A stretch of 64,000 nucleotides of DNA from Candidatus Nitrospira allomarina (lineage in GTDB: Bacteria; Nitrospirota; Nitrospiria; Nitrospirales; UBA8639), in NCBI RefSeq assembly GCF_032050975.1, contig NZ_CP116967.1, positions 1,981,001-2,045,000 on the forward strand. The letters are read 5' to 3'. The notes under the pieces are model-generated. The model saw only the letters and a program-made list of their open reading frames with translations. It was not told the DNA's origin and did no database searches. How positions within the stretch are numbered: the first letter of the stretch is position 1; each line of letters starts with the position of its first letter. Both the position numbers and the translations under genes were made by a program. Positions 51,659 to 64,000 of this stretch are shown here, piece after piece.

Positions 51659-53545
51659 ATGAATTATTCTAAAGTCGCCAGACTGGGAAGCCCCTTTTCT
51701 TCTCATTTACCGATACCCTTCGGCCTCCGGGTGTCTGGATTTCTGGTCGTCTTATTCTTTGGCTGCTTTGGACCCTTGACCGAGACCTTCGCTGCCACCA
51801 TTATTATTGTGAATAAAGATAGTCCCGGGGAGGGATTTAACGATCCTGCGCCTTTTACACCAGTGGGTGGAAATACGGCCACCACCCTTGGGGAGGCACG
51901 GTTAAAAGCATTTGAGTATGCGGCAAATATTTTAGCGCAGGTGCTGGTGAGCACGGTGGGCATTCGAGTCGATGCTCGAATTGATTCCTTGGGAACAGGG
52001 ATACTGGGATCGGCTGGCCCTAATACCGTCCATCGGAATTTTCCCAATGCTCCTGTGGCAAATACCTGGTATGTCCAATCCCTTGCCAATAAGCTTGCAG
52101 AGCAGGATCTGGATCTTACTACCAGTGATATAAGTGCCACCTTCAGTGCAAATTTCACGAATTGGTATTTTGGGCTGGATGCCAATCCTCCATCTGGTCA
52201 ATTTGATTTTGTTACCGTGGTACTTCATGAGATTATTCATGGCCTTGGTTTTTTGTCACTTGTTGATGTGCAAACCGGAGAGAAATTCTTAGGAACCAAT
52301 GATGTTTTTATGCGTTGGTTGGAGCTTCATGGAGCCAGTCCGGCCAATTACCCTGAAATGACCGATAACCAAAGGCAATATGCGAATGTGGCGAACCCGA
52401 ATCTTCATTTTGTTGGTGGCAATCTTCAAGGCGGCTCCGAAACCCTGACGGCCGGACGGACGGATACTCATGTTCAGATGTATGCTCCAAACCCGGCTCA
52501 ATTAGGTTCATCGGTGTCTCATTTCACGAATACGATTAAGCCTGATCAGCTTATGGAGCCAGGAATAGCTTCCGGAAGGGCGATTCATGATCTCGGGTTA
52601 GCTCAACCTCTGTTGCAAGATTTAGGATGGATATTTGAGGCTGGCGTGAGTTTCCCAACTCGGAATGATGTTAATGGTGACGAGAAGGCAGACCTCGTTT
52701 GGCGCAACACGAGCACGTGGGCTGTCGCGATTTGGTTGATGAACGGTTCTACGATTGCTTCCTCCGGTTTATTGGGGGTGGTGTCGTCGAAGTGGCAGGT
52801 TGCCGGTACTGGAGATGTCAATGAGGATGGGAAAGCAGATGTTATCTGGCGTCACAGCGATACAGGAACGGTTGCGGTGTGGCTGATGAATGGTCTCACT
52901 GTCATGTCGGTGGGTTTTCCAGGTAGCGTCTCTGTGGATTGGCAAATCGCGAGTGTGGGTGATGTCAACGGCGACGGGAGGGCGGACCTCGTTTGGCGCA
53001 ACACAAGTAGTGGGGAAGTGACGATTTGGTTAATGAGCGGCTCCACGATTGCTTCTTCCGGCCATTTGGGCGCCGTACCGTTGGAGTGGCAAATAGCGGG
53101 AACGGGAGATATGAATGCCGATGGAAAAGCGGATCTTATATGGCGGAATAACCTGACCGGCGTAGTGGAAGTGTGGCTAATGCAAGGACTCACGGTCCTG
53201 TCAATTGGTTTCACCGGAGGGGTCTCCACGGATTGGCAAATTGCAGGGGTGGGTGATGTAAATGATGACGGGATGGGGGATTTGGTTTGGCGTAAAACGA
53301 GTAACGGGGAGGTTGCAATTTGGTTGATGAATGGGGTGACTCTCAGTTCTCCTGGGTTTTTTGGCGTGGTGCCTCAGGGATGGGAGATTGCTAGCACCAG
53401 TGATGTCAATGGGGATGGGCGCGCAGATATAATTTGGCGTAACAAGCAGACGGGTACGGTGGCGGTGTGGATGATGAATGGGCTTACTGTCATGTCGATT
53501 GGCTTTCCGGGTAGTACTTCGATCAATTGGAAAATTCAACATTAG
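51659..53545 (+). CDS. Exported HExxH protein with FG-GAP-like repeats
   Basis: The 628-residue product has a long N-terminus with a hydrophobic signal segment (about 24-42), a globular domain (about 45-325) with the zinc-protease motif 'HEIIHGLGF' at 190-198, and six C-terminal repeats of about 46 residues (from about 337) of type 'DVNGDGKADLVWRNT...VAIWLMNG', which are FG-GAP/VCBS-like calcium-binding beta-propeller blades. H190, E191 and H194 fit zinc binding; the usual third ligand of the HExxHxxGxxH type is a serine (S200), so a distal ligand would be needed. An extracellular protease or adhesin is plausible. Confidence 0.8.
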   Translation: MNYSKVARLGSPFSSHLPIPFGLRVSGFLVVLFFGCFGPLTETFAATIIIVNKDSPGEGFNDPAPFTPVGGNTATTLGEARLKAFEYAANILAQVLVSTVGIRVDARIDSLGTGILGSAGPNTVHRNFPNAPVANTWYVQSLANKLAEQDLDLTTSDISATFSANFTNWYFGLDANPPSGQFDFVTVVLHEIIHGLGFLSLVDVQTGEKFLGTNDVFMRWLELHGASPANYPEMTDNQRQYANVANPNLHFVGGNLQGGSETLTAGRTDTHVQMYAPNPAQLGSSVSHFTNTIKPDQLMEPGIASGRAIHDLGLAQPLLQDLGWIFEAGVSFPTRNDVNGDEKADLVWRNTSTWAVAIWLMNGSTIASSGLLGVVSSKWQVAGTGDVNEDGKADVIWRHSDTGTVAVWLMNGLTVMSVGFPGSVSVDWQIASVGDVNGDGRADLVWRNTSSGEVTIWLMSGSTIASSGHLGAVPLEWQIAGTGDMNADGKADLIWRNNLTGVVEVWLMQGLTVLSIGFTGGVSTDWQIAGVGDVNDDGMGDLVWRKTSNGEVAIWLMNGVTLSSPGFFGVVPQGWEIASTSDVNGDGRADIIWRNKQTGTVAVWMMNGLTVMSIGFPGSTSINWKIQH

Positions 53546-54700: not shown

Positions 54701-54783
54701 CCTGAAAAAAAGCAAACCATCTGAAAGGGTGGGACGCAAAGCTATGGGCCTACGTCTCGGAGTTTGAGATAGGGTTGCCAGGT
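54701..54783 (+). promoter_or_regulatory. Cyclic-di-GMP-I (GEMM-I) riboswitch
   Basis: The GEMM-I consensus is plain: 'GCAAACCATCTGAAAGGGTG' (54711-54730) runs into 'GGGACGCAAAGC' and 'GGGCCTACG', and ends 'AGGGTTGCCAGG'. The P1 arms CCTG (54701-54704) and CAGG (54779-54782) pair. The GNRA-type loop and its receptor segment are present. GEMM-I RNAs bind cyclic di-GMP and control expression at transcription or translation. It lies 82 bases upstream of the start of the fibronectin-III protein gene, whose ribosome site (AAGGAG) is a likely target; a stem GAGCG...CGCTC (54815-54833 region) lies between them. Confidence 0.85.
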
Positions 54784-54865
54784 TGCCAGGCAAGCCACAG
54801 AGTCTCCTTGACATGAGCGGAGTGGCTTCGCTCGGCATGATTCACATGCATAAAGGAGATCTCGT

Positions 54866-55273
54866 ATGTCACACGATCAAGGTTTCTCTCAAATTACCTA
54901 CCCCCATACCCATACCCATTCCTTTCGATCCGTATTTAGGTCATTATGGACCATTGTTCTTTTTCTCTGTCTTTTTTCCTCCAATGCACTGGCGGGAGAA
55001 GTCACCCTAGCCTGGAATCCTCCTTCCGCAGAATATGGTGGATTCATTGTCGCCTACGGGACTTCAAGCGGCACTTATTCGGAGACTCAAGATGTCGGAG
55101 CTCAGGCCATTTATACGGTGACAAGCCTGACTCCCGGTCAAACCTATTATTTTGCGGTAAAAGCTTACGACCGGGCTCGTAAAATTGAAAGCCCGTTTTC
55201 AAATCAGGTGAGTGTTACCTTGCCTATCGTTAATGCGCGTCCTGCTCCTCCAAAGGATGTAAAGGTTTATTGA
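54866..55273 (+). CDS. Exported single-domain fibronectin type III protein
   Basis: The ATG follows AAAGGAG at a good distance. The 135-residue product has a His-rich start, a signal peptide (about 26-43, 'SLWTIVLFLCLFSSNALA') and one fibronectin type III domain: 'EVTLAWNPPSAEYGGFIVAYG' near 45-65 and 'YTVTSLTPGQTYYFAVKAYD' near 84-103, ending 'PPKDVKVY'. Such domains bind polysaccharides or proteins at the cell surface. The c-di-GMP riboswitch upstream suggests a role in the biofilm or attached state; this is inference. Confidence 0.8.
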   Translation: MSHDQGFSQITYPHTHTHSFRSVFRSLWTIVLFLCLFSSNALAGEVTLAWNPPSAEYGGFIVAYGTSSGTYSETQDVGAQAIYTVTSLTPGQTYYFAVKAYDRARKIESPFSNQVSVTLPIVNARPAPPKDVKVY

Positions 55274-55920
55274 GATTCGTTTTCTGGGAAAAATAGTTAC
55301 AAATAGATTGTATTTGGATGGGTTGCATCAACGGAAATGTCGTAAGCCGTTTTCACCCGGGATTTATGAAGCGGGCTCCGTGATAATGAAGTCTCCCTAC
55401 CTCTAAGGACATTTGCAGAACGAGGATGTTCTGCAAATGTCCTGTTTATAAAGAATTCTTCTCCGGCGTTCGTTAAATAATGGATATGAGGACAGGGTCG
55501 ATGACCTGAAGTCTCATTTCTCAAGTCCCACTCCGTCGAGATTTTAGTAACTGACCTCAAGAAATTTACATGAAGTCCTGTATGATCCCTTTAACTAAAA
55601 CTGAAGTCTTCCGGTAGAGTTTTATTTGTTTTCCCCACCTTGATCGACTTTATCTTGTAATTTTGGTATTCATCCCCATCTAGAAAAACAGTTTACGAAA
55701 AAAACCTTATACTTCACTTATACTGAAGCCAGAAGGACTGTTTCTTGTGCGGGTTCCTATGGTAGGGTCCATCCCTCATCAGGGAACTCATCTTGCAATT
55801 GACTTAACAGACTGATGAGGGCACCATATCTAAGAGTTGGTCATGCCCAAAACTATAGAGTATTCTTCTGACTCCACCCCCCCGCACTTCCATCGAATTG
55901 AAGATAATAAGGTAGATGTA
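55274..55920. other. Intergenic region before the outer-membrane barrel gene
   Basis: No gene is supported. A perfect 16-bp palindrome lies at 55406-55443 (listed separately). TATACT boxes at 55708 and 55719 exist, but the upstream TTTACG is not at a normal distance. Confidence 0.4.
55406..55443. repeat. Perfect 16-bp inverted repeat
   Basis: AGGACATTTGCAGAAC (55406-55421) and its exact reverse complement (55428-55443) flank a six-base loop GAGGAT. It is strong enough to act as a transcript end, but only a mixed GTTTATAAAG follows rather than a T-run, so it is not a standard intrinsic terminator. It lies 133 bases after the FN3 gene stop. Confidence 0.6.
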
Positions 55921-57309
55921 ATGATTAATTCCGTATGGCGAAAAATAAGAGCGGTGCGTCTTTCCCCATTTGCCACAATGCGTGAGCGGAAACGGCCATT
56001 TGCTGTTATTCTGACTGTTCTCGTTGCCTGTGAGATATTTTCCCCGGTCGGGGGACAGGCTCAATCTTTTTCTGATATGGGACTATTTTATTTTACCGGG
56101 TCTCATCGGCCTATTCAGAATCGGGGGGGGCTTTTTCGTGAATATATGACGGGAAATGGTTTAGGGGATGGTATCAAAGCCGGTCCGGTCCTACTCCGCC
56201 CGTTTTTAGGCGTATCGGAAGTGTATACCGACAATGTGTTTAAGAGAGACACAAATACGAAAAGTGACTTTCTTACGACCGTCGCGCCTGGAATTCAGGC
56301 GTTCATGCCGTTTGGCGGAGGTAAGCACTCTGTCCTTCTTGACTATCGTGCTGCCCAATTTCTCTACGCAAAATTTACTGAAAATAATGCCTTGGCCCAA
56401 GATGCTCTTGGCCACGTCAGTTTGAATTATCCGGGTGGTCTAGCCATAGACTTACAGGGAGGACATTTAGAAGGGTTTGATCCGAGAGGGTCGGAAGTGG
56501 ATACCCAACAAAGGGATATTACCAAATGGAATGTGAATCAGTTTTTAGGCCAGATTGAATTCACGGGACAAAAGGCTGGTATCCGTCTTCGCACGAATTT
56601 CGATGATTTAAATTACACCAACAATGGGCAGGCTGCCCCGCGTGACCGGACCCGGGCTGGTGCCAATCTGAGTGTGTTTGTAAGGGTAACCCCCTCAACC
56701 CGGGCTCTTCTTGGCGTTCGAATAGTGAACAATGATTATAATACGAATACGCAGCAAAATAGTTTCGGTTACGGAGCGTTTACGGGCTTCAGCGTGGCAC
56801 CTACCCGCCAGTTTTCGGGAGAATTCAATATAGGGTACCAGGTACTAAATTTTGACCACGCGCCTATCTCTGAAGAATCAACTCGTGGTCAAAACCTCCT
56901 TGCTAAGGGCTTAAGCCTAGGATCGGAGCAGCAGACTTTCTGGTACATGCGAGGAAATTTGGCCTGGAACCCCACGTCCCGGTTGAGTTTTAATATCCGT
57001 CCCTTTTCGAATATTAATCAGTCAGCGGTTCAGGGTACCTCCACCTTTAAACGAATAGGCGTTGACGTTTATGGGAGACAGTCGTTTACGGAACGTCTGG
57101 CCCTCAGAGGAAATTTTTACTATGCCAACGATAACTTTAATACGAATAGAACTGATGATCAATTTCGATTCCGAATTGGACCGGAATACCGTACGGTCAA
57201 ATGGCTGGGTTTTCGCTTAGATTATATTTTCGAGAAGAGAAGCTCAAACATAAATAATTTTGAATTCAACAGTAATACGATCATGCTTTCGATCCAAGGA
57301 ATAATCTAG
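55921..57309 (+). CDS. Outer-membrane beta-barrel protein
   Basis: From ATG 55921 (AAGG eight bases upstream) the product is 462 residues; the open frame extends to TTG 55837, and an internal ATG at 55978 would start right at the signal peptide ('RPFAVILTVLVACEIFSPV'). The mature part is a series of alternating amphipathic strands rich in aromatic residues ('LLGVRIVNNDYNTN', 'FSGEFNIGYQVLNF') with a final strand 'SNTIMLSIQGII', typical of outer-membrane barrels. It resembles barrels accompanying exopolysaccharide systems (EpsL-like), but the family is not certain. It lies between the FN3 and STN genes. Confidence 0.72.
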   Translation: MINSVWRKIRAVRLSPFATMRERKRPFAVILTVLVACEIFSPVGGQAQSFSDMGLFYFTGSHRPIQNRGGLFREYMTGNGLGDGIKAGPVLLRPFLGVSEVYTDNVFKRDTNTKSDFLTTVAPGIQAFMPFGGGKHSVLLDYRAAQFLYAKFTENNALAQDALGHVSLNYPGGLAIDLQGGHLEGFDPRGSEVDTQQRDITKWNVNQFLGQIEFTGQKAGIRLRTNFDDLNYTNNGQAAPRDRTRAGANLSVFVRVTPSTRALLGVRIVNNDYNTNTQQNSFGYGAFTGFSVAPTRQFSGEFNIGYQVLNFDHAPISEESTRGQNLLAKGLSLGSEQQTFWYMRGNLAWNPTSRLSFNIRPFSNINQSAVQGTSTFKRIGVDVYGRQSFTERLALRGNFYYANDNFNTNRTDDQFRFRIGPEYRTVKWLGFRLDYIFEKRSSNINNFEFNSNTIMLSIQGII

Positions 57310-57640: not shown

Positions 57641-58435
57641 ATGAGATCCAAACAAGGAATGCCCAAATGGATGAGAGAGTTGGTGCTAATGGTCTTCTTA
57701 ATATTTGGGGCACTCATGGGACAGGGGATGGCATTGTCCCCGGAAGTCCCAATCCAAGTTGAAGGTGATCGGCTAACAGGTCATCTCTCACAGGTGACCT
57801 TACGATCGGTGTTGGAGCAATTACAGAAACAGTTGGGTATAAAATATGAGGCCCCTGGTGAAGAACTGAATAGAGTCATTTCGGTCGATCTACAGCAAGA
57901 CAAAATACTCCCGGCCTTGGCCAAAATTCTGGCACAGTGGGATTATGCGTTTACGGTCAATGCGGCGGGACGCTTGCAATATCTCTATGTAACCGCAAAA
58001 GCCCCACCAAAAGAAGCAGTTTCTGAGACGAGAAACCCCACAGATGTTGATTCATCTGATGTGTTGGGTGTATCGGGTTTGAGTTCAGACCGGCAAATGG
58101 ATCCTGGGCAAGAAGAGATGGATACTCGTTCCTTCTTATCTCAGGAGGGAGAGACTGGTGATAACTTTTCTCCAGCATCCTCATCTTTCTCATCTTCAGG
58201 AGAAAGCTCTGGTTTAAGAGCTCCGGTGGTAGGTGTTCCCATGGATATTCAGCCGGTGCCTGCTGGAACCACGATGCCCATGGTGCCGCCAAGTAGTGCT
58301 AGTGGGATGCAGGTGACGCCGCCGGCCAACTCCCCGGACATGCCAATCATTCCAGCCACAGCCTATCCACCGATGGAGATTGAGCCGGTGCCCAGCTACC
58401 TGCAGGAGGAGATGCTTCGGAATATGCAACCGTAA
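57641..58435 (+). CDS. Exported STN-domain protein with Pro/Ser/Met-rich tail
   Basis: The 264-residue product has a signal peptide (about 12-31) and one STN domain (about 36-115): 'VTLRSVLEQLQKQLGIKYEA' and 'LAKILAQWDYAFTVNAAGRL'. STN is normally the N-terminal domain of secretins and TonB-dependent receptors, yet no secretin or barrel follows. The rest (about 125-264) is low-complexity, rich in Ser, Pro and Met, with 'MEIEPVPSYLQEEM' at the end. The start follows AAGGAGACTCACA. Perhaps an adaptor that docks to a barrel in the outer membrane, such as the upstream gene product; this is inference. Confidence 0.75.
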   Translation: MRSKQGMPKWMRELVLMVFLIFGALMGQGMALSPEVPIQVEGDRLTGHLSQVTLRSVLEQLQKQLGIKYEAPGEELNRVISVDLQQDKILPALAKILAQWDYAFTVNAAGRLQYLYVTAKAPPKEAVSETRNPTDVDSSDVLGVSGLSSDRQMDPGQEEMDTRSFLSQEGETGDNFSPASSSFSSSGESSGLRAPVVGVPMDIQPVPAGTTMPMVPPSSASGMQVTPPANSPDMPIIPATAYPPMEIEPVPSYLQEEMLRNMQP

Positions 58436-59002: not shown

Positions 59003-59818
59003 ATGAATAATACATACAGTCCTTTTTCACCATTGATCTGTGCCTGGCAACACAGAACCTTGATTGCCCGCCTTGCCAAGCGAGAGATCGATGCTCGTTA
59101 TCGAGGGTCGATGCTTGGGGTAATCTGGGCCTTTGTCGTCCCGATGTTGATGCTAGGGGTATATACGTTTGTCTTTTCGGTCGTGTTTCGGATTCGATGG
59201 GAGGTGCCCACGGAGGAAAACGGCGCCTTTGCTCTGTTATTATTTTCCGGGTTGATTATATTTAATCTGTTTTCAGAATGTGTCACGCGTGCTCCTGGTC
59301 TTATGCTCGAAAATGTGTCGTATATCAAAAAGGTAGTGTTTCCTCTGGAGATAATGCCTTGGGTATCGATATTAGTGGCACTTTTTAATGCTGCCGTAAG
59401 TCTTCTGATTTTGTTTATATTCTACCTCATAGTCCATGGTTTTCCACCCCTAACGGTGTTGCTGTTGCCGGTGGTACTTTTTCCGTTTGTCCTCTTGATT
59501 GTAGGATTAGGTTGGTTTCTGGCTTCCATGGGGGTGTTTCTACGTGATGTCCAGCCGTTGGTAGGCGTGATGACCACGATGATGATGTTTCTCAGTCCTA
59601 TTTTTTACCCCCTATCGGCTATTCCTGAAACCTATCGAGGATTCATTCAGCTCAATCCGTTGACACCCGTCCTGAATGCGTCGAAATCGGTCATATTTTT
59701 GGGGCAAATGCCGGAATGGGTAGACTGGCTCCTGTATACGGTTGTTTTTTGGGTGGTCGGTTGGTTGGGCTTTGTATGGTTCCAAATAACGCGAAAAGGA
59801 TTTGCTGATGTTGTCTAA
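59003..59818 (+). CDS. ABC-2-type polysaccharide export permease (Wzm-like)
   Basis: The 271-residue product has about six membrane helices and the ABC-2 polysaccharide-exporter pattern: 'LAKREIDARYRGSMLGVIWAFVVPMLML' near 24-51 cited by its core 'REIDARYRGSMLGVIWAF', then 'YIKKVVFPLEIMPWVSIL' and a late 'PIFYPLSAIPETYRGFIQLNP'. Such permeases move completed O-antigen or capsule chains across the inner membrane, powered by the ATPase encoded next. The end overlaps the start of that gene, so they are co-translated. It opens a locus that continues past the window. Confidence 0.9.
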   Translation: MNNTYSPFSPLICAWQHRTLIARLAKREIDARYRGSMLGVIWAFVVPMLMLGVYTFVFSVVFRIRWEVPTEENGAFALLLFSGLIIFNLFSECVTRAPGLMLENVSYIKKVVFPLEIMPWVSILVALFNAAVSLLILFIFYLIVHGFPPLTVLLLPVVLFPFVLLIVGLGWFLASMGVFLRDVQPLVGVMTTMMMFLSPIFYPLSAIPETYRGFIQLNPLTPVLNASKSVIFLGQMPEWVDWLLYTVVFWVVGWLGFVWFQITRKGFADVV

Positions 59819-61280
59819 GAGTCTCTTTAAAAAACCCTCAATCTTCTCGCGGGAAATGAGTAGGGGAGAGGAAGCTCAACCCACCTATCGCGGATCGCAA
59901 GAATACAAGTCTCAGGGGGTAAGTGGGCAATCCGTGCAAGAGGCCAATGACGTCGCCATCCGCGTTCAAAATCTCTGCAAGTGCTACCAGATTTATGATC
60001 AACCACAGGATCGATTGAAACAGTGGATATACCCACGATTGCAAAGATTTATCGGTAGGCCAGCCAAACAATATTTCTGTGGATTCTGGGCGCTCAAGGA
60101 AGTCTCGTTCGAGGTAAAAAGGGGGGAAACCGTTGGCATTATCGGTCGCAACGGCAGTGGAAAATCTACGCTTCTCCAAATGATCTGCGGAACGCTCACC
60201 CCAACAAGTGGCAGTATATTAACCTATGGCCGGATCGCGGCCCTGCTGGAATTGGGTTCGGGATTCAATGCGGAGTTTACGGGGCGCGAAAACGTTTATA
60301 TGAATGCCGCAGTGCTTGGACTGAGCAGAGCAGAAATCGATGCGCGTATCGATGACATCATTGCATTTGCCGATATTGGCGACTTCATCGAACAACCGGT
60401 AAAAATGTACTCAAGCGGGATGATGGTTCGGCTCGCTTTTGCTGTTCAATCCCAAGTTGCCCCGGCTATTCTCATTGTGGATGAAGCCTTGGCAGTTGGT
60501 GATGCAAAATTCCAGGCTAAATGCTTTGATCGTTTAAAGAAACTCAAAGATAGTGGGACAAGCATATTGCTGGTCACCCACTCTAGCGAACAGATCGTGA
60601 CGCATTGCACCAAAGCACTATTGCTTGAAAATGGTATGGTGCTGGAGTCTGGCCAACCTCGCGTGGTGGTGAATCGTTATATGGATTTGTTGTTTGGCAA
60701 AGAAAAAAAATCACCAGACGCCGAGCCCATCGCGGCAACCACCGCTGCAAACGAGGCTGCAAACCTTAGGTGCTCGTTAAGTTATACGGAAGATGTGTTT
60801 GCCACGCGTCCCGGTTACAATCCGCACGAATATCGCTGGGGGGATGGTTCGGCCTCAATTTTGGATTTTTATTTGTCGGCAGATGGGGACATGTATCCTT
60901 ATGCGATTTCGACGGGACAAACGGTCCATTTGGGTGTTTCATTTAGGTTTTCAAGGAGCCTAGTGCGACCAATATTAGGGATTACTATCAAAACCAAAGA
61001 AGGTGTAACCATCTATGGGGCTAATTCCGAAACACTTGCAGCCAAAGAATTCAAATCCTTGGGTCAGCATGGTCAAGTAGCTTACGCCAAGGCTGTCTTT
61101 TGTTGTCGTCTTGCGCCTGGAGACTATTTTATTTCCTTAGGTATTGCCACCAAGCATGGCGAAGGAGACACGCCTCACGACAGGCGTTATGACGCTATTC
61201 ATTTTCAAGTTCGGCCAGAAACTAAATTTTTTGGCCTTGTGGACTTGGGTCTCCACTTAACGGCTCAGGAAATTGCTTGA
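59808..61280 (+). CDS. ABC transporter ATP-binding protein with C-terminal Wzt-type domain
   Basis: From ATG 59808, within the permease gene, the product is 490 residues. The ATPase domain (about 50-290) has Walker A 'GIIGRNGSGKSTLLQ' near 111-125, the signature 'YSSGMMVRLAFAVQSQ' near 200-215 and Walker B 'ILIVDEALAVGD' near 219-230. The C-terminal portion (about 325-485) resembles the carbohydrate-binding domain of Wzt, which reads the terminal modification of a finished O-antigen chain before export. A methyltransferase-bearing gene follows, which fits a methylated chain terminus. N-terminal start alternatives (59856) exist. Confidence 0.9.
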   Translation: MLSKSLFKKPSIFSREMSRGEEAQPTYRGSQEYKSQGVSGQSVQEANDVAIRVQNLCKCYQIYDQPQDRLKQWIYPRLQRFIGRPAKQYFCGFWALKEVSFEVKRGETVGIIGRNGSGKSTLLQMICGTLTPTSGSILTYGRIAALLELGSGFNAEFTGRENVYMNAAVLGLSRAEIDARIDDIIAFADIGDFIEQPVKMYSSGMMVRLAFAVQSQVAPAILIVDEALAVGDAKFQAKCFDRLKKLKDSGTSILLVTHSSEQIVTHCTKALLLENGMVLESGQPRVVVNRYMDLLFGKEKKSPDAEPIAATTAANEAANLRCSLSYTEDVFATRPGYNPHEYRWGDGSASILDFYLSADGDMYPYAISTGQTVHLGVSFRFSRSLVRPILGITIKTKEGVTIYGANSETLAAKEFKSLGQHGQVAYAKAVFCCRLAPGDYFISLGIATKHGEGDTPHDRRYDAIHFQVRPETKFFGLVDLGLHLTAQEIA

Positions 61281-64000
61281 TGAAATCACTCTTGTCAAGA
61301 GCGGGCTATGGGCTCAATCCCAAAACCAACGTCTGGTCGAGACCTGAATACCCCGGCATTGATTACGATGATGGCGAGATCATCGAGCAACGCCTCGCCG
61401 AGATCATTGAGCATGCGAGTGACATTTCTGTTCTGTCTACAGAGTTACGCCAGCATTGTACGGACTGGCCGTCTCTGTATCACCTCAGCAGCACACGAGC
61501 TAATATCTTGCGTCCATTTCAAAGCATGTTGGAATCTACGGATGTCCTGGAAATTGGAGCGGGATGTGGCGCCATTACTCGTTATTTGGGGGAATGTGGG
61601 GCCCATGTCCTGGCTTTGGAAGGAACGCATCGCCGTGCAAGTATCGCGCGATCACGCACACGTGATCTTCCAAACGTCATTGTGGTGTCGGACACATTTG
61701 ATGACTTCAAATGGGATCACCAGTTTGATGTCATCACACTCATCGGTGTGCTCGAATATGCAAACCTGTTCACGCCGGGGGAAGATCCTGCACTCGGGAT
61801 GTTACGGCGAGTGAGAGCCATGCTGAAACCTAATGGGAAGTTGGTTGTTGCGGTTGAGAACCAACTGGGTCTTAAATATTTTACTGGCGCACCTGAAGAT
61901 CACATTGGGCAAGCTATGTATGGCCTAGAGGGACGATACCGAAAAGACCAGCCACACACTTATGGTCGCAAAGTCCTTACGGAGATGCTCAGACAGGCCG
62001 GTTTTGCGAGTTCGGAGTTCATGGCGCCATTCCCTGACTATAAGTTGCCAGCTTCAATCGTAAGTGAAAGCGGGTTTGTATGTGAGGGGTTTGATGCCAG
62101 TGCTCTGGCCTGGCAAAGCGTGAAACGCGATCCACAGCTGCCGCCACTTCTGGCATTCTCACCTGAACTGGTTTGGCCGGTTCTCATGCAGAATGGAGTG
62201 GCGTTGGACTTGGCAAATTCATTTCTCATCGTGGCGGGGACATCTCTCCAGCACGTGTTGGATCCGTTAATCCTGGCCTGGCATTTCACAAGTGAACGAT
62301 CCAAAGAGTTCTGCAAGGAAACGCGGTTTTTATCAGTCGACAATGGCGCAATCGAGGTTCAGTACTATCCCCTTGTGTCGGGTTCAACCATGCATATTCA
62401 CGGGCGACTATTGACGTTCAACATTCCAGAAAAAGCGGAATATGTGCACGGTAGACCATTGTCTGAAGAGCTCGTCCAGATTGTCACTCGGGATGGCTGG
62501 TGTATAGAAGAAGTTGCCACATTTTTGAAGCGATACCTGCAAATACTGCTTTCGATGAACGTATCTGCCGAAATTTCTCTGCCAATCGATTCTCCGGACA
62601 TACCGATACCAGGTGAACTTTTTGACGCTCTTCCGCAAAACATCATCGTTTGCCATGACGGAACATGGCAGGTCATAGATCAAGAATGGACATTGAACGA
62701 TGACCTATCGGTCGGCAGGATGATTTTTCGATCTCTGCATTTGCTCATTCATTCGGTAACGCGCTTTGGCACAACTGACGATGATTCTCTTGACACGCCT
62801 TTAGAACTTATTCTTGCTGTATTCAAAGCAATGGGCTTTGCCATAACCGATGATACGATCGAACGTTACGCCAAGCAGGAGATAGAGTTGCAAACCGAAG
62901 TAGCCCGGCGGCCGTTGAACTATGATGAATTTCTTCAATGGCTGCGCACGACTCCTTTGCCTCGTCAAAATTTGAATCAAGCCCTGGTTGAGCGAGATGG
63001 TCAGATTGCCAATCTCAAACAGGCTGCGGCTGAACGCGAAATGCAGATCGCCAGTCTCAATAAGGCTGTGGCTGAGCACGAACGGATTGTTGGGGAATGG
63101 GATCAGCGTTTTGGCAATCTGTATGCCCGGCTGCTGACGAAAGAGGAAGAATTACGTCGAATGCATTCATCCTTGCTATGGCGAAATATCAGCAAAGTAA
63201 GGATTTTGAGGGAACGGCTGTGTCCAGAGGGTTCATGGCGTGGAAAGGTTTGCGCAAGTTTGGTGCATTGGTTGAAGGGCTCAGATCTTCCTGTGACTCA
63301 AAGTCGCCAATCCCCCGGTGGCGTGCTTGATCGAGTCCTAACGAGTGCAAAATCCCTATTGCCCGTTTCCCCTCACCGAAAACATCAATTGGTGTCGTTT
63401 GTCTTTGGACGGTTCGGCTCTTTCTTTCAACAGACGGAAAGTTATCGGCGGTGGAAAGACATGCAATTGCCTGTCCTTCATGAATCTGGAAATCCGCATT
63501 TCTCTCCTCAGAATCCTCTTCGTCAGCCGGTTTCTCTCATTCAGCTTGAACCGGGTGGGATGACCACGCTCATTCAGTCCTTCCACTTCACCGAAGTGGA
63601 GCAGCCTTTGGTGTCTATCGTGATCCCTGTCTACAATCACCTGGAATACACCGTTTGCTGTTTGGCTTCGATTTTGAGGTATGTGCCTCAATGTAGCTTT
63701 GAGGTGATCATCGTTGACGATGGGTCTCAGGATGAGACCCCCCAAATTCTCCCGGATGTTCAGAACATTCGTTATTGCAGGAATGAGACAAATATTGGAT
63801 TTCTCCATTCTTGCAATAGGGGTGCAACATTGGCTCGCGGCCAATATCTATTGTTACTGAATAATGACACGCAAGTGCTTGAGGGATGGCTTGATGAATT
63901 GGTGAACACTTTTCAAGAACAATCAGAAGTTGGCCTTGTGGGTTCAAAATTGCTGTATCCCAATGGTGTGCTCCAGGAGGCTGGGGCCATTATTAAACCG
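61280..64000 (+). CDS. Methyltransferase-coiled-coil-glycosyltransferase fusion (3' end outside window)
   Basis: Reading from ATG 61280, which overlaps the preceding stop as ATGA, all 907 codons to the window edge are open. Domains: a class I SAM methyltransferase with 'VLEIGAGCGAITRYL' at 89-103 and 'VITLIGVLEYANLF' near 155; an uncharacterised middle (about 230-560); a coiled coil (about 565-640); and a family 2 glycosyltransferase with 'VSIVIPVYN' from 778, the aspartates of 'VDDGSQDETP' at 813-814 and 'NND' at 861-863. Such proteins build or cap O-antigen chains. Position after Wzm-Wzt supports a role in chain modification and synthesis. The true length is longer than visible. Confidence 0.88.
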   Translation, partial: MKSLLSRAGYGLNPKTNVWSRPEYPGIDYDDGEIIEQRLAEIIEHASDISVLSTELRQHCTDWPSLYHLSSTRANILRPFQSMLESTDVLEIGAGCGAITRYLGECGAHVLALEGTHRRASIARSRTRDLPNVIVVSDTFDDFKWDHQFDVITLIGVLEYANLFTPGEDPALGMLRRVRAMLKPNGKLVVAVENQLGLKYFTGAPEDHIGQAMYGLEGRYRKDQPHTYGRKVLTEMLRQAGFASSEFMAPFPDYKLPASIVSESGFVCEGFDASALAWQSVKRDPQLPPLLAFSPELVWPVLMQNGVALDLANSFLIVAGTSLQHVLDPLILAWHFTSERSKEFCKETRFLSVDNGAIEVQYYPLVSGSTMHIHGRLLTFNIPEKAEYVHGRPLSEELVQIVTRDGWCIEEVATFLKRYLQILLSMNVSAEISLPIDSPDIPIPGELFDALPQNIIVCHDGTWQVIDQEWTLNDDLSVGRMIFRSLHLLIHSVTRFGTTDDDSLDTPLELILAVFKAMGFAITDDTIERYAKQEIELQTEVARRPLNYDEFLQWLRTTPLPRQNLNQALVERDGQIANLKQAAAEREMQIASLNKAVAEHERIVGEWDQRFGNLYARLLTKEEELRRMHSSLLWRNISKVRILRERLCPEGSWRGKVCASLVHWLKGSDLPVTQSRQSPGGVLDRVLTSAKSLLPVSPHRKHQLVSFVFGRFGSFFQQTESYRRWKDMQLPVLHESGNPHFSPQNPLRQPVSLIQLEPGGMTTLIQSFHFTEVEQPLVSIVIPVYNHLEYTVCCLASILRYVPQCSFEVIIVDDGSQDETPQILPDVQNIRYCRNETNIGFLHSCNRGATLARGQYLLLLNNDTQVLEGWLDELVNTFQEQSEVGLVGSKLLYPNGVLQEAGAIIKP

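What the first reader, a model, noticed from the sequence alone, without database searches (positions are those of the whole stretch)
54701..54865. c-di-GMP-I riboswitch controlling a secreted FN3 protein
A well-formed GEMM-I aptamer stands before a gene for a single exported FN3 domain. This gives a direct c-di-GMP input into a surface gene of a likely nitrite oxidiser, where biofilm control is little described.
Basis: partly seen in the sequence, partly recalled or inferred. Interest (0 to 1): 0.65.

Follow-up and report, generated by a model that had tools for sequence, protein, structure and literature searches.

The report
Riboswitch before a secreted FN3 gene
A well-formed cyclic-dinucleotide riboswitch sits in front of a gene for a small exported protein in a Nitrospira-type bacterium; it is one of a family-wide set, and one base in its binding pocket leaves open which signal molecule it reads.

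Summary
Window 54701-54790 (+) matches Rfam c-di-GMP-I (RF01051) at 73.4 bits (gathering score 35, E 1.7e-12). It ends 75 nt before the ATG (54866) of a 135-aa protein with a signal-like N-terminus and one FN3 domain. The leader forms a hairpin that buries the Shine-Dalgarno sequence (z -2.77), so control of translation is most likely; the on/off direction is not settled.

(1) It is not isolated: the genome has nine such aptamers, its genus 83 in 20 of 20 genomes, and 32 of 48 genomes of the family match. They recurrently precede FN3 proteins, Flp pilins, a sigma factor and response regulators. (2) The ligand-selectivity base, G20 in the Vibrio aptamer, is A here (54711), a change associated with 3',3'-cGAMP recognition. 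Yet all seven GGDEF domains of the genome keep the aspartate of ordinary diguanylate cyclases, so no cGAMP maker was recognised. Best reading: a c-di-GMP translational switch with a relaxed pocket; a new member of a known kind with a testable ligand question.

The parts
54701..54790 (+). c-di-GMP-I (GEMM-I) aptamer; P1 54701-54704/54787-54790, GAAA tetraloop 54723-54726, pocket bases A54711 (position 20), A54738-54739 (47-48), C54786 (92)
   Evidence: RF01051, 73.4 bits, E 1.7e-12; numbering from published pairs (PMC3764141 passages) laid
54711..54711 (+). A at the ligand-selectivity position (G20 of Vc2; model position 11)
   Evidence: mismatch to the consensus G; A shared only with sister genome G001 among the class-A loci
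54785..54836 (+). possible antisequestor: 54785-54798 with 54822-54836, sharing bases with the P1 3' strand
   Evidence: appears in SD-open and partial-transcript folds; core 7 pairs kept in 63 of 63 cells of nine orthologues, no compensatory change
54800..54863 (+). Shine-Dalgarno sequestor hairpin, 54800-54809 with 54853-54863
   Evidence: MFE -28.3 kcal/mol, z -2.77; 81 of 90 cells paired, no compensatory change
54852..54858 (+). Shine-Dalgarno sequence AAAGGAG
   Evidence: sequence
54866..55273 (+). 135-aa protein: signal-like N-terminus plus one FN3 domain
   Evidence: ORF; PF00041 35.7 bits against 25; orthologues in ten genomes of the genus including this one
55837..57309 (+). neighbouring outer-membrane beta-barrel protein (BBP2_2); shared transcript not shown (an ATG lies at 55921)
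   Evidence: PF10082 103 bits against 23.7; TIGR03016 53.4 bits, below its cut-off 90.85

Best explanation
The element is a GEMM-I riboswitch that senses a cyclic dinucleotide, most likely c-di-GMP, and controls translation of a small exported FN3 protein. Shown by computation: the aptamer, its spacing to the gene, the FN3 domain, a hairpin that buries the Shine-Dalgarno sequence, and conservation in orthologues. Inferred mechanism: without ligand, the P1 3' strand plus 54791-54798 can pair with 54822-54836, which keeps the anti-Shine-Dalgarno arm in a loop and the ribosome site open; ligand locks P1, that helix loses its outer half, and the 54800-54809/54853-54863 hairpin shuts translation (an OFF switch, only about 55:45 over ON). 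A at position 20 probably loosens ligand choice or affinity without abolishing c-di-GMP binding. The FN3 protein probably belongs to the envelope or matrix, because the same kind of aptamer also precedes other FN3 proteins, a Flp pilin, a sigma factor and a possible flagellar protein in this genome.
For: RF01051 at 73.4 bits. Pocket bases 47, 48 and 92 and the closing pairs G45-C22 and G14-C93 are kept. c-di-GMP machinery in the genome: 7 GGDEF, 4 EAL, 3 PilZ. All 7 GGDEF domains have the ordinary Asp. cGAMP-type aptamers can bind c-di-GMP through a protonated adenine, and position 20 is a selectivity factor rather than a hard filter (PMC9262584 passages). Most orthologous leaders of the same gene have G20. 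SD hairpin z -2.77; no terminator-like site between aptamer and ATG. With 3 nt of coding sequence the cost of opening the SD rises when the aptamer is enforced in 5 of 7 orthologues, in one more by only 0.1 kcal/mol.
Against: A20 is the base associated with cGAMP recognition. The direction is weak: with 30 nt of coding sequence the difference shrinks or reverses, and in this very sequence it reverses (3.6 free, 1.4 bound); the comparison over all loci is indecisive. Neither leader helix has a compensatory change. No binding or expression data.
Confidence: 0.72

Rival explanations
1. It is a 3',3'-cGAMP riboswitch (GEMM-Ib type), and the organism makes cGAMP with a cyclase that lacks the known signature.
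For: A at position 20; a G20A mutant is listed as able to bind cGAMP (PMC7288161 table); A20 recurs in 8 of 83 hits of the genus and 4 of 55 in other genera (after the rows dropped as told).
Against: All 7 GGDEF domains of the genome, and 30 of 30 fetched (of 34 found) in five A20-bearing relatives, have Asp instead of the Hypr Ser. No SMODS nucleotidyltransferase in the genome. Orthologous leaders of the same gene have G20.
Confidence: 0.12
2. The aptamer is decaying: A20 and a seventh A in the strand between P1 and the pocket weaken binding so that the gene is now constitutive.
For: Seven A in place of six bases in orthologues; another A20 copy in this genome (1139945) precedes a split FN3 gene; one class-A relative (G007) has a changed core.
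Against: Score still 73.4 bits; every other pocket base and P1 are kept; the FN3 frame is intact in both A20 genomes, and the leader is 94% identical over nine orthologues.
Confidence: 0.08
3. Same c-di-GMP switch, but ligand turns the gene ON, or control is at transcription termination.
For: With 30 nt of coding sequence the SD-opening cost is lower with the aptamer enforced in this sequence (1.4 against 3.6 kcal/mol). Adhesin-type genes are often induced by c-di-GMP (recalled).
Against: For termination: no terminator-like site in the leader, and a conserved hairpin covers the SD. For ON: with 3 nt of coding sequence the cost rises with the aptamer in 5 of 7 orthologues.
Confidence: 0.35

Closest known systems
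Vc2-type c-di-GMP-I riboswitch (RF01051)
   Same: Whole fold, P1/P2/P3, GAAA tetraloop, pocket bases A47, A48 and C92, and the G45-C22 and G14-C93 pairs
   Different: A instead of G at position 20 and seven instead of six bases between P1 and the pocket (the six in Vc2 follow from its numbering)
Geobacter cGAMP riboswitches (GEMM-Ib; pilM, pgcA)
   Same: Related aptamer fold with A-type selectivity position (identity of the Geobacter base partly recalled); also before pilus and surface genes (PMC6456294 passages)
   Different: No Hypr GGDEF signature in this genome; pilM is a transcriptional ON switch (PMC9262584) while this leader has no terminator-like site
c-di-GMP-I-GGC (RF03167)
   Same: Sister Rfam family in the same clan; the two class-B FN3 aptamers of this genome fall there
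   Different: The window element and four class-A orthologues are assigned to RF01051

Membership tests
c-di-GMP-I riboswitch (RF01051) | Covariance score above the gathering score | tested here: met
   73.4 against 35 bits
c-di-GMP-I riboswitch (RF01051) | Conserved pocket bases G20, A47, A48, C92 | tested here: inconclusive
   A47, A48 and C92 kept; position 20 is A. Members with A at this position still score far above the cut-off
c-di-GMP-I riboswitch (RF01051) | Lies in the 5' leader of a gene with an expression platform | tested here: met
   75 nt before the FN3 start, SD-covering hairpin z -2.77
c-di-GMP-I riboswitch (RF01051) | Binds c-di-GMP and changes expression | not testable with these tools
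   needs in-line probing and reporters
cGAMP riboswitch (GEMM-Ib) | A at position 20 | tested here: met
   A54711; that GEMM-Ib natural members carry A20 is partly recalled
cGAMP riboswitch (GEMM-Ib) | A cGAMP synthase in the host (Hypr GGDEF with Ser, or SMODS/DncV type) | tested here: not met
   7 of 7 GGDEF have Asp; SMODS 0. An unknown synthase is not excluded
cGAMP riboswitch (GEMM-Ib) | Selective binding of 3',3'-cGAMP | not testable with these tools
   needs binding assays
FN3 domain protein | Pfam fn3 above the gathering score | tested here: met
   35.7 against 25 bits

The most novel reading that the evidence does not exclude
In this Nitrospirales family the pocket base of one conserved riboswitch regulon is shifting from G20 to A20 (sometimes C20) in separate genes and lineages, so that part of the regulon reads 3',3'-cGAMP, or both dinucleotides, fed by a cyclase outside the known Hypr and DncV types. 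This would be cGAMP signalling in likely nitrite oxidisers.
Probability: 0.12. Interest if true: 0.72.

Novelty: new member of a known kind. Interest (0 to 1): 0.37.

Why it matters
Among the open-access papers found here, none that I read reports a c-di-GMP-I riboswitch in Nitrospira-type nitrite oxidisers (searches; passages). The conserved regulon (FN3 proteins, Flp pilins, a sigma factor, response regulators, and a protein with a flagellin-type motif) names concrete targets for how these bacteria might change between swimming and attachment. Orthologous leaders that differ at position 20 (A in G000 and G001, G in the other class-A copies) are a natural test of how one base sets ligand choice.

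Tried and rejected
Chance match: rejected on the Rfam score, absence in 14 control genomes and the conserved gene spacing. Terminator platform: no site in the leader. Direction of the switch: three computations did not settle it; over all loci the free and bound opening costs are close for most classes and the sign depends on how much coding sequence is included. Helix covariation: no compensatory change in either leader helix; the leader is too conserved. Hypr GGDEF: none by signature; one relative domain (L116) read Thr, and several others read oddly, because the script took a wrong frame, and read L116 as Asp. Position 20: the script printed 10 A and 1 C of 83 in the genus and 6 A and 4 C of 55 in other genera. 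I dropped two A rows in the genus (G000:4093728, G004:C36), two A rows (G042:C26, G044:C24:76797) and one C row (G044:C5) elsewhere because the motif was caught one base off, and one C row (G039:C24) as degenerate. That leaves 8 A and 1 C of 83, and 4 A and 2 C of 55. Whether the downstream BBP2_2 and ABC-transporter genes share the FN3 transcript was not decided: a gap of 563 nt with a perfect inverted repeat lies between.

Full report
Observation. cmscan of the window against Rfam gives two hits over gathering scores: a tRNA, and c-di-GMP-I (RF01051) at 54701-54790 (+), 73.4 bits, E 1.7e-12, full length. The following ORF, 54866-55273, starts 75 nt after the aptamer, with AAAGGAG at 54852-54858. 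Its 135-aa product has a hydrophobic N-terminal segment ending ALA-G (read by eye) and one fn3 domain, 35.7 bits against a cut-off of 25.

Pocket. I fixed the numbering with published statements seen as passages: G45 pairs with C22, G14 with C93, and the key ligand-contacting bases are G20, C92, A47 and A48 (PMC3764141). In the window these fall at G54736-C54713, G54704-C54787, A54711, C54786, A54738 and A54739. All are kept except position 20, which is A. A passage of PMC9262584 calls the G20 equivalent a selectivity factor rather than a hard filter; PMC7288161 (passages) lists a G20A mutant that can bind cGAMP; PMC9262584 (passages) says cGAMP aptamers can bind c-di-GMP through a protonated adenine. 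The strand between P1 and the pocket has seven A in the window and six bases in most orthologues. The seventh A could be a homopolymer error; A20 itself is shared by a second genome, G001.

Is there a cGAMP maker? The genome has seven GGDEF domains. At the position where the Geobacter enzyme has Ser348 and ordinary cyclases have Asp (PMC6456294 passages), all seven have Asp. In five relatives that also carry A20 aptamers (G001, G004, G011, G013, G014; a further A20 relative, G012, was not searched) 34 GGDEF rows were found and 30 became loci; all 30 have Asp. No SMODS nucleotidyltransferase was found in the genome; that search did ring in three controls. EAL domains: 4. PilZ domains: 3. So c-di-GMP turnover is present and cGAMP synthesis is not evident.

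Leader. From 54791 to 54868 the RNA folds into a hairpin in which 54800-54809 pairs with 54853-54863 and covers the Shine-Dalgarno sequence: -28.3 kcal/mol, z -2.77, 4 of 200 shuffles fold as well. No terminator-like site lies between aptamer and ATG. Over nine orthologues the leader has 94% mean column identity. The sequestor is paired in 81 of 90 cells, and a competing helix, 54792-54798 with 54822-54828, in 63 of 63, but neither has a compensatory change. The competing helix can be extended with bases of the P1 3' strand. That architecture predicts that ligand, by locking P1, favours the sequestor (OFF). With 3 nt of coding sequence the cost of opening the SD is higher with the aptamer enforced in 5 of 7 orthologues tested (of nine), higher by only 0.1 kcal/mol in one (G008) and lower in one (G006); with 30 nt the difference shrinks or reverses, and in the window itself it reverses. 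I therefore commit to translational control with a slight lean to OFF.

Relatives. The genome has nine RF01051 matches, all over the gathering score; 14 controls have none. In the genus 20 of 20 genomes match, 83 hits. By blastp clustering of the first downstream gene: 36 in one FN3-type cluster, 19 sigma factor, 13 Flp pilin, 5 response regulator, 2 of a 579-aa protein, and 8 singletons, of which two loci have no downstream frame and one is the class-A locus with a broken FN3 frame. Single linkage makes the FN3 cluster loose: it holds long proteins with other domains too. At family level 32 of 48 genomes and 7 of 10 genera match, and FN3, Flp, sigma and response-regulator genes again follow (by eye). 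In this genome Pfam gives fn3 over the cut-off in three of four scanned FN3 products and just under it in the fourth (24.7 against 25); Flp_Fap; TadE (a separate frame further downstream); sigma-70 regions 2, 3 and 4; Response_reg; and a Flagellin_IN motif at 23.3 against 22.7 in the 579-aa protein. The fifth FN3 locus (1139945) was not scanned; its gene is split.

Class A, the window's type. Nine loci have this aptamer. The short FN3 protein is found at 68-100% identity in ten genomes of the genus including this one; in the other genera only distant FN3 matches appear. The tenth genome, G004, has no class-A aptamer in the list; a contig of the same length in the named collection begins within 15 bases of the match (L135), so its leader is probably missing from the assembly (inference). 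Position 20 is A only in G000 and G001. A tree of the flanking DNA of eight loci, aptamer left out, joins these two with 99/96 support, so one G-to-A change in their ancestor is the simplest history. Elsewhere in the regulon A20 occurs in a total of 8 of 83 hits of the genus and 4 of 55 in other genera, and C20 in 1 and 2 (rows dropped as told in Tried and rejected).

Host. Named relatives are Nitrospirales MAGs, one labelled UBA8639. Passages of PMC12342949 place family UBA8639 as lineage IV with nitrite-oxidation genes. Three frames of 1146-1157 aa resemble type II DMSO-reductase subunits but none reaches that family's cut-off. 'Likely nitrite oxidiser' is reasonable, not proven.

Literature. 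Two papers hold Nitrospira, c-di-GMP and riboswitch together, each with Nitrospira once (listing only). Six hold Nitrospira, c-di-GMP, biofilm and nitrite-oxidizing (listing); passages of two were read and neither mentions riboswitches. PMC12342949 mentions only guanidine riboswitches and no di-GMP (passages). PMC12452182, which names the c-di-GMP-I-GGC family, has no word beginning Nitrospir (passages). The library is open-access only, and the founding GEMM-Ib papers were not held.

Verdict. A real, well-placed GEMM-I riboswitch and a new member of a known kind. What lifts it a little above routine is the family-wide regulon in likely nitrite oxidisers and an A20 pocket without a recognisable cGAMP synthase, which makes the ligand a clean experimental question.

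Noticed in passing
L009 4946-5022 and 8022-8098 (own genome 1139945 and 1143021): Two aptamers 3 kb apart differ in one base, which is position 20 (A in the first, G in the second); the FN3 gene behind the A20 copy is split into 179-aa and 569-aa frames, the other is intact at 562 aa.
   Followed up: partly
57641-58435: 264-aa exported-looking protein without a Pfam hit; a 41% identical 247-aa paralogue follows the class-B riboswitch FN3 gene directly, so the FN3 and partner pair recurs.
   Followed up: partly
55407-55442: Perfect 15-bp inverted repeat with a 6-nt loop between the FN3 gene and the BBP2_2 gene; terminator-like but without a T run.
   Followed up: no
51659-53545: Exported metalloprotease-like protein (below the NF038122 cut-off) with C-terminal FG-GAP repeats; FG-GAP repeats also end the long riboswitch-linked FN3 proteins of this genome.
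   Followed up: no
L014 5566-5657; also L080, L086 and loci in other genera: Aptamers before response-regulator genes often depart from G20: C in G000 and G042, A in G004, G014, G041 and G043.
   Followed up: no
L012:12115-12990 and L011:6025-7761: Riboswitches also precede a sigma-70-type factor with regions 2, 3 and 4 and a 579-aa protein with a Flagellin_IN motif, a possible motility arm of the regulon.
   Followed up: partly
L058 (G007:C111:19260-19349): Class-A aptamer with GACGCCAGG instead of GACGCAAAG, so the A47 position is changed: probably decayed or an assembly error.
   Followed up: no
59003-64000: Wzm/Wzt-type ABC transporter with a Wzt_C domain followed by a large frame that looks by eye like a methyltransferase-glycosyltransferase: a surface polysaccharide locus downstream of the FN3 gene.
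   Followed up: no
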